Part shown: in pieces, positions 10,055 to 38,242 of the stretch
How the letters are laid out: each line of letters starts with the position of its first letter
Numbering within the stretch: position 1 is the stretch's first letter
Assembly (NCBI GenBank): GCA_004292955.1
Contig: RDXX01000015.1
Location: forward strand, 124,001-188,000
Reading direction: 5' to 3'
Length of the DNA: 64,000 bases
Origin: Oscillatoriales cyanobacterium
GTDB lineage: Bacteria; Cyanobacteriota; Cyanobacteriia; Cyanobacteriales; Microcoleaceae
Notes under the pieces: model-generated
Told to the model about the DNA's origin: nothing
Databases searched by the model: none
Seen by the model: the letters and a program-made list of their open reading frames with translations, nothing else
Made by a program: the position numbers and the translations under genes

Positions 10055-10681
10055 ATGACCATTGCGATCGACCAACCAATACAACAGAAACCACTCAGCT
10101 TTGACGAGTTTATCGCCCGTTATGGTGGCGATAATCGCTATGAGCTGATCGATGGAGAGGTATTCGACTTGGAACCCACAGGCCCCCATGAGGAGGTTGC
10201 AGCCTTCATTACCACAAAAATATGTGTCCAGATCGACGGAACAGGCTTACCTTGGTTTGTCCTTCAGCGGGGACTATTGCGCCCTTCAAATATTGGTATG
10301 ACAGCATTTCGACCTGATGTTGCAGTTGTCGATCGCGATGAACTTACTAAAGAACTGCTTTGGTCTGGTGAGTCGATTCTAACACTGGGCAGTTCGATTA
10401 AATTTGTGGCGGAAGTTGTTAGTAGTAACTGGCAAAATGACTATTCTCGTAAAGTCGAAGACTACGCAGTTTTAGGTATTCCTGAATATTGGATTGCGGA
10501 CTACGCAGGATTAGGTGGTACTCAACACATTGGAAAGCCTAAAAAACCCACCCTTTCTATCTGCACTTTAGTGAATGGGGAATATCAAATTCAACAGATT
10601 CGGGGCAATCAGACCATCGTCTCTCTAACTTTCCCAGACTTAAAACTGACTGCTGAACAGGTTTTGATGGCTGGCAGGTAA
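10055..10681 (+). CDS. Uma2 family endonuclease (208 aa)
   Basis: The protein matches the Uma2 (DUF820) restriction-endonuclease-like family, abundant in cyanobacteria. It has the N-terminal SFDEFIARYGGDNRYELIDGEV segment split here as SFDEF...RYELIDGEV, then FRPDVAVVD and KFVAEVVS. The latter two supply the Asp and Glu of a PD-(D/E)xK core. Length is usual for the family. The biological role of these predicted nucleases is not established and no DNA-modification or transposase gene is adjacent. It lies alone between the M16 pair and a convergent DUF1272 gene. Confidence 0.85.
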   Translation: MTIAIDQPIQQKPLSFDEFIARYGGDNRYELIDGEVFDLEPTGPHEEVAAFITTKICVQIDGTGLPWFVLQRGLLRPSNIGMTAFRPDVAVVDRDELTKELLWSGESILTLGSSIKFVAEVVSSNWQNDYSRKVEDYAVLGIPEYWIADYAGLGGTQHIGKPKKPTLSICTLVNGEYQIQQIRGNQTIVSLTFPDLKLTAEQVLMAGR

Positions 10682-10695
10682 AATCATTAAATGCC

Positions 10696-11007
10696 TTACC
10701 GCTTTTCCGGAGCTAAGCTGCCAATTACCGCCACAAGCTTTGCATAAGCCTCTAGATCCACTGGCCTGTATTTGACTTTGGCGATCGCCGGATCGTTGCT
10801 AAGATAGTTGTTGTCTCTCCAGTTTTTTGATGGCCTGATTGGTCTCAGAACAAAGCCACCACCACAATTCGGACAAATATTTTTACCCAAAATGCTCTCC
10901 ACACAGGTAGCGCAAAAAGTGCATTCATAGGTACAGATGCGTGCATCAAGCGAGTCTGGTGGCAACGCCTTGTTGCAATGCTCACAGGTTGGTCTGAGTT
11001 CGAGCAT
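10696..11007 (-). CDS. DUF1272 domain protein, cysteine-rich (103 aa)
   Basis: The N-terminal 60 residues hold four CxxC-type pairs (CEHC, CTYECTFC, CATC, CPNCGGG), typical of DUF1272 zinc-ribbon-like proteins, with the family start MLELRPTCEHC. The remaining 40 residues contain no known motif. A zinc-binding role is inferred from the cysteines; the cellular function is unknown. It is followed upstream by another minus-strand small gene, 36 bp away, possibly in the same transcript. Confidence 0.8.
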   Translation of the reverse strand: MLELRPTCEHCNKALPPDSLDARICTYECTFCATCVESILGKNICPNCGGGFVLRPIRPSKNWRDNNYLSNDPAIAKVKYRPVDLEAYAKLVAVIGSLAPEKR

Positions 11008-11042
11008 ATTTTCTCCTATTTGTGACGGCTTTATAACTCTTT

Positions 11043-11423
11043 CTAGGAATATGTAACCGATGTTTCGCGTTGCGGTGTCATAGATGAAAAGGTTCCTTCA
11101 CTATAAACGCAGAACAGGGGTGGACGGCGATCGTTTGGTTTCCAGCCGTTAGCAATACCATGCAAGATAGCTGTCCGAGCAAATTTGCTAGTGACGATCC
11201 AGGCTGCTTTGTGCAAATGGAACACATTACCGCCATCGGTTAAATGGAAACCGTTGATTGGCAACCACGGATAACGCATGATAACAATTAACTGCTCGCC
11301 AGATGAAACACTCCCTTGCAAAGTCAAGTAGTCGTCGTCAAAAGAAGGGCGGAAATGCCAACGGAATTCTTGCCCTTCAACATTGATGGTGCGGAAACCT
11401 TTTTTCTTCTTAGGGTAAGTCAT
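11043..11423 (-). CDS. hypothetical protein (126 aa)
   Basis: I do not recognise this family. The protein is soluble, starts with a basic patch (MTYPKKKKGFRT) and contains several aromatic/His segments (FRWHFRP, NVFHLHKAAW). It is divergent from the broken XRE-type regulator and shares with it a 22-bp palindrome at 11459-11480, so it may be controlled by that regulator. The gene order (small unknown gene next to an XRE antitoxin-like gene) is compatible with a toxin-antitoxin locus, but no toxin motif is seen. Confidence 0.6.
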   Translation of the reverse strand: MTYPKKKKGFRTINVEGQEFRWHFRPSFDDDYLTLQGSVSSGEQLIVIMRYPWLPINGFHLTDGGNVFHLHKAAWIVTSKFARTAILHGIANGWKPNDRRPPLFCVYSEGTFSSMTPQRETSVTYS

Positions 11424-11458
11424 AGCAACTGTTACCTCGAATGACGATCTTCGCCATA

Positions 11459-11480
11459 ATTATATCAGATATGATATAAT
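11459..11480. promoter_or_regulatory. palindromic operator overlapping a TATAAT box
   Basis: TATATCA-GATA-TGATATA is a perfect inverted repeat (11461-11478) that extends by two more paired bases on each side. A TATAAT -10 box at 11475-11480 lies inside it, 28 bases before the ATG at 11508. This is the usual arrangement for autorepression by an XRE-type antitoxin. Confidence 0.55.
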
Positions 11481-11507
11481 ATGACACGGATATAGAGGAC
11501 TAATGTT

Positions 11508-11822
11508 ATGGATCAAGCGAAAAAGAAGCGTCTAGAAGATCGAGGCTGGAAAATCGGATCTGCCTCGGAATTCTTAGAACTTTCACCAGAGGAATCGACC
11601 TTAATTGAGATTAAGTTAGCCCTCAGTCTTAATCTCAATTAAGGTCGGCAAAAATTGATGACACAGGCAGAGTTAGCCGATAAAATCAACTCCAGTCAAC
11701 CTCGTATTGCCAAGGCTGAAAATGGCGAAGATTCGGTTTCTATTGAACTGTTAATACGCGCAATCCTGGCAACAGGTGCAACGCCTCAAGATATAGGGAA
11801 AATTATTGCTCAAGCAGGATAG
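11508..11822 (+). pseudogene. XRE-family (HTH) antitoxin-like gene with in-frame stop
   Basis: One frame runs from ATG 11508 to TAG 11822 and is interrupted only by TAA at 11640-11642. The first part (MDQAKKKRLEDRGW..., SPEESTLIEIKLALS) and the second part (QKLMTQAELADKIN, SSQPRIAKAENG, SIELLIRAILATG) together match the common cyanobacterial XRE/HTH protein of about 104 residues. The stop lies in the second arm of a perfect 20-bp inverted repeat (11596-11615 and 11628-11647), which replaces the expected SxxLRERR-type residues. Translation could restart at TTG 11655 or ATG 11658 to give a 54-55-residue HTH protein. So it may be dead, or be two short proteins. Confidence 0.7.
11596..11647. repeat. 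perfect 20-bp inverted repeat inside the HTH gene
   Basis: The arm CGACCTTAATTGAGATTAAG occupies 11596-11615, and its exact reverse complement lies at 11628-11647, with a 12-base loop. The left arm encodes conserved sequence, so the right arm appears to be the later, inverted copy. It introduces the TAA stop. Confidence 0.9.
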
Positions 11823-12061
11823 AAATGATGGCGCAGGTTTCGAGCATATAATTGACTATCGGTAATATCAGGTCGTGAGTTGATGACTCCTTCACTTTGC
11901 CAGTAAGCAACAAGTTCTGCTCCAGTTTTAGGTGGGTTACTCAGAACTTCTCTGATCGATAAAACACGTAGTATGTACTCAGATAAAGGTAGGTTTAGTC
12001 GTAAGGCTTCAGTAGATAGTTGACTTTCTAACTCCGGCGGTAACTCTAATTGAATGCTCAT
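11810..12061 (-). CDS. small antitoxin-like protein (83 aa)
   Basis: The protein reads MSIQLELPPELESQLSTEA, then a helical LPLSEYILRVL segment, and ends near GAELVAYWQ...GVINSRPDI with ARNLRHH. This is the pattern of small cyanobacterial proteins annotated as ribbon-helix-helix-like or orphan antitoxins; there is no toxin gene beside it. The ATG at 12061 was chosen because GAGGAA lies 8 bases upstream, whereas the ATG at 12076 has no such site. Its 3' end overlaps the 3' end of the convergent HTH pseudogene by 13 bp. Confidence 0.65.
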   Translation of the reverse strand: MSIQLELPPELESQLSTEALRLNLPLSEYILRVLSIREVLSNPPKTGAELVAYWQSEGVINSRPDITDSQLYARNLRHHFYPA

Positions 12062-12231
12062 GTCTGCGTTCCTCATCGATCGAGATTCTCAATTGATCGT
12101 AGCTGATTTCATTATTATCCAAAATAATCCGACACAACACCACAACCAAAAAAAATTAGCCAGACTTAAATTGAACCTTTTCGGTTCCCGATCGGTCAAA
12201 ATGAAGCAGACGCCCGATCGGTCTAACTTAT

Positions 12232-31957: not shown

Positions 31958-32581
31958 AGGGATTTGAGATTTTATATTTGAGATTTTGGATTGTGAAGAA
32001 GTTTTTTAAATGCACCGCTTTCATAGTCTCCTTGCTTCGCGGGGCGAAGGAAGAGAGATAAGAGAAGAAAATTAGTTGACAATAGACGCACACATGGATA
32101 TAAGGCTATTCTATTCCGCTGGGCCCGATCGCGATGTTATACAATGTGCACGGCGCCCCAAGCTGACACAGATCCGGGCGCGCGACAGCTTGCTGCGCGG
32201 GCGTTTCATTTACATTCCGAGACGCAACTGGCACATTAACCAAAGGTATGCGGTTGCGCTGTCTTCACTCTTGGCGCCACAATCTACCTCAAAAAATCTT
32301 TAACTATTGTCACACTTGCGTCGAGGACTTATCTCATCTCCAGTAATGAAAGTTCGCAAAAGCGGACTTCAGTCCGCATAATGCGGACTGAAGTCCGCAC
32401 TACGAACCAATTTTATTGTGCGATCGCCCAAATCGAAAATTGTGCTAAACTCGGGCTGTGCGCTGAATTTCAGGCACAATTGATGCCGATCGGTTTAGGG
32501 AGGCTGAAAAATATTTTGAAATTTTTTTGCTTTACCCCTAGACTTGTGCTGAGATGTTATGTTATAGTTAAAAACGTTATG
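31958..32581. other. intergenic region upstream of tRNA-His
   Basis: No ORF is convincing. It contains two inverted copies of a 16-bp palindrome-like unit, GCGGACTTCAGTCCGC at 32362-32377 and GCGGACTGAAGTCCGC at 32383-32398. A GGTATGCGGTTGCGCTGTC segment near 32246 is related to the MITE ends at 24786 and 32684. The tRNA promoter should lie near 32540-32575. Confidence 0.5.
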
Positions 32582-38178: not shown

Positions 38179-38242
38179 AGGAGACGGCAGTGCCGTGTCC
38201 CTACGCCCGATTAATTGTAGGGAAACGGCACTGCCGTCTCCT
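38179..38242. repeat. 64-bp hairpin repeat between helicase partner and xisI
   Basis: The 26-base arm starting AGGAGACGGCAGTGCCGT at 38179-38204 is repeated inversely at 38217-38242 with one mismatch, around a 12-base loop. It lies directly upstream of a coding remnant and may have disrupted that gene. Confidence 0.75.

What the first reader, a model, noticed from the sequence alone, without database searches (positions are those of the whole stretch)
11508..11822. HTH antitoxin-like gene cut by an in-frame stop that arose in a perfect 20-bp inverted copy
The reading frame is continuous over 315 bp except for one TAA. That stop lies in the right arm of an exact 20-bp inverted repeat with a 12-base loop, whose left arm encodes the conserved LIEIKLALS region. 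This looks like a template-switch (quasi-palindrome) event that replaced about six codons in frame. The gene's palindromic operator and TATAAT box are intact. Either a truncated HTH protein is made by restart at 11655/11658, or the antitoxin is dead and its toxin is gone.
Basis: partly seen in the sequence, partly recalled or inferred. Interest (0 to 1): 0.7.

Follow-up and report, generated by a model that had tools for sequence, protein, structure and literature searches.

The report
Antitoxin gene broken by hairpin mutation
In a cyanobacterium close to Microcoleus, a leftover antitoxin gene whose toxin partner has been deleted was probably broken when the DNA copying machinery briefly copied the wrong arm of an imperfect hairpin; it is a clear example of a known kind of mutation in a decaying gene pair.

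Summary
In detail: the frame 11508-11822 has one in-frame TAA (11640-11642) inside the right arm of a perfect 20-bp inverted repeat. Relatives show what happened. Of 80 homologues covering codons 30-51 none has a stop there. Six close relatives share the same three letters, within five bases, where the window differs, and all three window letters complement the left arm. One relative keeps an 11-bp imperfect form. This fits a quasipalindrome template switch, changing three codons, not six. In relatives the gene is second in a toxin-antitoxin operon (Gp49 toxin, then HTH antitoxin) behind a conserved palindrome. The window keeps the palindrome and only seven codons plus stop of the toxin. None of seven copies at this locus has an intact toxin; three keep a complete antitoxin frame. 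Among 74 loci with upstream DNA, the six broken antitoxins all lack an intact toxin. Best reading: toxin lost first, then the antitoxin died. Restart at 11658 would lack the start of the HTH domain. An assembly error cannot be excluded without reads. A new case of a known kind.

The parts
11459..11480 (.). palindromic operator ATTATATCA-GATA-TGATATAAT, ending in TATAAT
   Evidence: exact palindrome; core TATATCAGATATGATATA with up to 3 mismatches on the + strand in 56 of 80 homologous loci. By comparison with L025 its last T belongs to the toxin remnant (by eye)
11480..11503 (+). remnant of the partner toxin gene: last seven sense codons (YDTDIED) and stop
   Evidence: window homology to relatives begins at 11480; alignment; full toxin in L023 1008-1349
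11508..11822 (+). HTH antitoxin gene (HigA/XRE-like), probable pseudogene with stop at codon 45
   Evidence: 88% protein identity to the L022 antitoxin with 1 TAA; HTH_3
11596..11615 (+). left arm of the inverted repeat, presumed template (encodes TLIEIK)
11628..11647 (+). right arm; the bases at 11639, 11640 and 11643 differ from all six compared relatives and complement the left arm
11640..11642 (+). in-frame TAA in the right arm
   Evidence: no stop in codons 30-51 in any of 80 homologues
11810..12076 (-). convergent 88-aa gene; its relative in G004 (L018) lies directly before a PIN-domain gene on the same strand, which is absent here
   Evidence: homology break at 11826

Best explanation
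This is a decayed type II toxin-antitoxin operon. In relatives it has a palindromic operator, a Gp49/HigB-like toxin gene and then a HigA-like HTH antitoxin gene. In the window lineage a deletion removed the toxin up to its last seven codons and joined the operator to the antitoxin gene (shown by comparison). With the toxin gone the antitoxin was no longer essential (inferred). Its reading frame held an imperfect inverted repeat. During replication the nascent strand folded back on the 11-bp paired part, copied a few bases from the other arm and returned at a short match (GTCG), so that three neighbouring bases changed at once, the palindrome became perfect and a stop arose (the pattern is shown; the molecular event is inferred). 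The gene is now a pseudogene (inferred, likely).
For: Perfect 20-bp repeat, none of 12 bp or more in 5 shuffles. At the three sites the six compared relatives agree with each other and differ from the window; these are 3 of 12 window-only differences in 315 bp, packed in 5 bp, and each complements the left arm. 0 of 20,000 simulations with 10 random substitutions reached 20 bp, maximum 15. L092 (UBA11344) keeps an 11-bp form with the unaltered extension (by eye). No stop in codons 30-51 in 80 of 80 homologues. L023 toxin: Gp49, E 9.3e-11; L022 and L023 antitoxins: HTH_3; L022 antitoxin: HigA 6af3 in the PDB, E 0.00073. Operator core in 56 of 80 loci. Toxin intact in 0 of 7 copies at this locus; antitoxin frame complete in 3 of 7. 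Of 74 loci with upstream DNA: both intact 38, antitoxin intact without intact toxin 30, neither intact 6, broken antitoxin with intact toxin 0. The nine other window-only differences are 6 amino-acid changing and 3 silent (sites, codons read by eye).
Against: No reads, RNA or protein data: an assembly or amplification artefact at the hairpin is not excluded. The order (toxin first) is inferred from other loci, not seen in this lineage. Two further window-only differences lie in the left arm (11599, 11601) and must be older than the switch; one is silent, and Nostoc MG11 has the same letters. 30 of 74 loci keep a complete antitoxin without an intact toxin, and pairwise ratios for such orphans are low (median 0.18), so loss of the toxin does not by itself make the antitoxin useless. 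The survey was drawn by the antitoxin's C-terminal 55 aa, so loci with a lost antitoxin are undercounted, and related loci are not independent. The window's own pairwise ratio to L022 is 0.25 with the three codons masked, which does not show relaxed selection.
Confidence: 0.83

Rival explanations
1. The perfect repeat arose by independent point mutations and its perfection is chance.
For: An 11-bp inner repeat exists in a relative (L092), so only a few changes are needed.
Against: 0 of 20,000 simulations with 10 random substitutions reach 20 bp; three changes in 5 bp, all towards the other arm.
Confidence: 0.04
2. The inverted copy is an assembly, amplification or library artefact at a hairpin.
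For: Such chemistry can copy hairpin arms (general knowledge); no reads seen; the change is in none of the 8 congener genomes that hold a match to the gene.
Against: The place is inside a 302,891-base contig of a genome rated 99.93% complete and 0.05% contaminated; such artefacts usually affect few reads, not the consensus (general knowledge).
Confidence: 0.08
3. The downstream part is translated by re-initiation at 11655/11658 and works as a short DNA-binding protein.
For: ATG 11658 lies 15 bases after the stop and an AAGG lies upstream; HTH_3 still matches residues 2-45 of the 55-aa form; the operator is intact.
Against: The HTH match starts at profile position 10 of 55, so the beginning of the domain is missing; 73 of 80 loci have a full-length antitoxin frame by the criteria; none of 80 has a stop in codons 30-51.
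Confidence: 0.05
4. The hairpin is a functional RNA or terminator element.
For: Strong predicted hairpin: -34.4 kcal/mol for 111 nt, z -4.52.
Against: No T-run follows on either strand (by eye); in 80 homologues the longest perfect repeat of the same stretch is 4-8 bp.
Confidence: 0.02

Closest known systems
Quasipalindrome-associated template-switch mutation (E. coli thyA hotspot and lacZ reporters; yeast coding genes)
   Same: An imperfect inverted repeat becomes perfect and neighbouring bases change together to match the other arm (PMC7202029 and PMC8604942, abstracts and passages)
   Different: A natural cyanobacterial case, seen only by comparison of strains, that made a nonsense codon in an orphan antitoxin
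HigBA / Tad-Ata-type toxin-antitoxin operon (Gp49-like toxin first, HTH antitoxin second; the names are recalled)
   Same: Gene order, Gp49 and HTH_3 matches in relatives, palindrome before the toxin
   Different: In the window the toxin is deleted and the antitoxin interrupted; no activity known
Orphan (solitary) antitoxins
   Same: Antitoxin gene without toxin, operator retained, as in L025, L032, L078, L079, L083
   Different: Here the antitoxin itself is broken

Membership tests
Quasipalindrome-associated template-switch mutation | imperfect inverted repeat in the unmutated form | tested here: met
   11-bp inner repeat in L092 (by eye); 8 bp in L018 and 6 bp in L022, L023, L024, L025 and L008
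Quasipalindrome-associated template-switch mutation | clustered changes that make the arms more complementary | tested here: met
   three changes in 5 bp; 20 bp now against 11 bp in the control form of the gene
Quasipalindrome-associated template-switch mutation | arises in one event during replication | not testable with these tools
   inferred from clustering
HigBA / Gp49-HTH toxin-antitoxin operon | Gp49/RelE-superfamily toxin gene directly upstream | tested here: not met
   only seven codons and stop are left in the window; an intact toxin in 38 of 74 relatives' loci
HigBA / Gp49-HTH toxin-antitoxin operon | complete HTH antitoxin | tested here: not met
   TAA at codon 45
HigBA / Gp49-HTH toxin-antitoxin operon | palindrome before the operon | tested here: met
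   11459-11480; core in 56 of 80 loci. That it is bound by the antitoxin is inferred
HigBA / Gp49-HTH toxin-antitoxin operon | toxicity and neutralisation | not testable with these tools
   no experiment

The most novel reading that the evidence does not exclude
In cyanobacteria this operon repeatedly loses its toxin while operator and antitoxin stay, so that the antitoxin lives on as a self-standing regulator or anti-addiction gene; the window catches the next and last step, death of the orphan antitoxin by a single template switch.
Probability: 0.3. Interest if true: 0.4.

Novelty: new member of a known kind. Interest (0 to 1): 0.27.

Why it matters
It is a clean natural example of a hairpin template switch that made a stop codon, with unaltered forms in relatives, and it sits at a locus where toxin loss can be compared in seven strains. 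It helps to tell real pseudogenes from sequencing errors and gives a small test case for the order in which toxin-antitoxin pairs decay. The mutation class is established, and solitary antitoxins are known in general (the latter recalled).

Tried and rejected
Considered a terminator or RNA element (no T-run by eye, not conserved), gene conversion from the genome's other copy (the C24 copy is 55% identical at protein level and reads differently there), and a conserved two-part gene (no stop in 0 of 80 excepted, that is none of 80 has one in codons 30-51). The upstream 126-aa ORF (11043-11423, minus) is not a recognisable toxin: no Pfam match reaches its cut-off, no NCBIfam match, no relative in the 147 other genomes of a sample of the order. 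Selection: pairwise ratios to the nearest neighbour have medians 0.10 (38 antitoxins with intact toxin), 0.18 (29 of 31 orphans that gave a value) and 0.15 (5 with upstream DNA cut); neighbours were not matched by class, so I do not lean on it. The PDB search with the L023 toxin found nothing at E 0.01. The 80-base stretch with the changed arm matched 5 of 148 sampled genomes of the order, at 100% only in the window's own. Viral contigs, phages, plasmids and metagenomes were not searched (the metagenome cap was 0). Papers: abstracts and passages of PMC7202029 and PMC8604942; all others as search listings only.

Full report
Observation. The window lies in a 7.29-Mb genome, on contig C30; the best match of the gene's downstream part in named genomes is Microcoleus sp. 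FACHB-DQ6. The 20-bp inverted repeat at 11596-11615/11628-11647 with a 12-base loop is exact. It is the longest in the window at loops up to 60; five of five dinucleotide shuffles have no repeat of 12 bp or more. The frame 11508-11822 has one stop, TAA at 11640-11642, codon 45.

What relatives show. A DNA search of 29 genomes of the genus (the window's own included) found matches in 13; in the other 12 of these, 8 genomes match in the antitoxin gene and the rest only in flanking DNA. A scan of named genomes with the 55-aa downstream part kept the best 80 of 111 relatives. Against six close copies (L022, L023, L024, L025, L008, L018; alignment) the window has 12 letters that none of them has in 315 bases; L092, not among the six, shares the window's letter at 11729. 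Three of the 12, at 11639, 11640 and 11643, lie within five bases, and each complements the left arm. Codons 44-46 read K-E-R in these six relatives and N-stop-G here. Over the 20 bases of the right arm L022, L024, L008 and L092 differ from the window at these three bases only; L018 and L025 have one more difference and L023 two more (by eye). Two more window-only differences lie in the left arm (11599, 11601), so the left arm must have had its present letters before it served as template; Nostoc sp. MG11 (L026) has the same letters there. L092 (UBA11344) has the 11-bp inner repeat with the unaltered extension (by eye).

Chance. Of the 83 loci given to, 80 cover codons 30-51; none has a stop in that stretch, and their longest perfect repeat is 4-8 bp. 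In 20,000 simulations with 10 random substitutions, started from a control form of the gene that has the 11-bp repeat, no repeat exceeded 15 bp. One template switch explains three changes. GTCG at the outer end of the right arm, present also in L022, L024, L008, L018 and L092 but not in L025 and L023, gives a place to return to the normal template. The strand and the enzyme cannot be told. The change was seen in no other genome: it is absent from the 8 congener genomes with a match to the gene, and the 80-base stretch is matched at 100% only in the window's own genome among 148 sampled from the order.

What the gene was. In L023 the gene follows a 113-aa gene with a Gp49 domain (E 9.3e-11). 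The antitoxins of L022 and L023 match HTH_3, and that of L022 matches HigA of the PDB (6af3, E 0.00073). NCBIfam matches of toxin and antitoxin are all below the curated cut-offs, so the label 'HigBA/Tad-Ata-like' rests on Pfam, the PDB match, gene order and recalled knowledge. A core palindrome TATATCAGATATGATATA with up to three mismatches lies on the + strand in 56 of 80 loci, 46 of the 56 hits starting at locus positions 950-999, just before the usual toxin start; base-shuffled loci give 0.2 hits per set of 80. In the window it is at 11459-11480. Window homology to relatives starts at 11480 with the last seven codons and stop of the toxin. The palindrome is thus the operon's own, brought next to the antitoxin by loss of the toxin. 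The TATAAT is only a sequence match; no transcription start is known.

Decay at this locus. Seven copies share flanking DNA (window, G004, G005, G012, G013, G027, G028; for G005 on the downstream side only, its contig ends upstream). I take the flanking genes for an M16 peptidase and an efflux membrane-fusion protein from recall; no family search was run on them. None of the seven has an intact toxin: G012 keeps codons 32-113 on one contig while operator and toxin start lie on another, G013 codons 95-113 with the operator, G027 codons 20-45, G028 codons 82-113, G004 codons 94-113, G005 none found. Antitoxin frames are complete in G012, G013 and G027 (the last with four extra codons at its end); G028 has a stop, G004 and G005 are cut. 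G019 has an intact pair in other surroundings. G008 has an antitoxin match without a toxin match. The window genome's other copy, on C24, has a complete antitoxin frame and a toxin split over two frames.

Wider survey. Of the 80 loci, 6 were set aside because upstream DNA is missing (5 with intact and 1 with broken antitoxin). Of the other 74, 38 have both genes intact, 30 an intact antitoxin without an intact toxin (21 partial or interrupted, 9 not found), 6 neither, and none a broken antitoxin with an intact toxin. This fits loss of the toxin first, which the logic of such pairs predicts. 'Intact' means a match over nearly the whole length without stop. The sample was drawn by antitoxin similarity, so loci with a broken antitoxin are undercounted, and related strains are not independent. 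The 30 orphans with a complete frame, and their low pairwise ratios, also speak for a use of the antitoxin without its toxin, which is my most novel reading.

Function now. Re-initiation at 11658 would give 54 aa without the first part of the HTH domain. The perfect hairpin is strong in RNA (-34.4 kcal/mol, z -4.52) but is not followed by a T-run.

Known or new. Template-switch mutations at quasipalindromes are established in E. coli (PMC7202029, abstract and passages) and in yeast coding genes, where they give neighbouring amino-acid changes (PMC8604942, abstract and passages). This is a further natural example, in a cyanobacterium. One search with 'toxin-antitoxin', 'cyanobacteria' and 'Microcoleus' listed eight papers; none of their titles or abstract starts concerns this locus, which is no proof of absence.

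Noticed in passing
window 11810-12076 (-): 88-aa gene without a family match at cut-off; in G004 (L018) its relative precedes a PIN-domain gene. No PIN gene lies next to it here, so two convergent orphan antitoxin-like genes may lie side by side.
   Followed up: partly
window 10696-11423 (-): A DUF1272 gene and a 126-aa ORF sit between the Uma2 gene and the antitoxin. The 126-aa ORF has no relative in 147 other sampled genomes of the order, and window 11020-11455 matches none of 28 congeners at E 0.001 (the only matches are to the operator).
   Followed up: partly
window 10681-11826: Variable spot: in G007 and G006 the Uma2 gene is followed within about 80 bases by the homology block of the 88-aa gene; G004 carries other toxin-antitoxin genes here.
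   Followed up: partly
L025, L032, L078, L079, L083: The operator core starts 94-112 bases before a complete antitoxin frame, with little or no toxin left: recurrent toxin loss with operator and antitoxin kept.
   Followed up: partly
window 38179-38242 and 32362-32398: Other perfect inverted repeats: 18 bp with 28-base loop, and 17 bp with 3-base loop.
   Followed up: no
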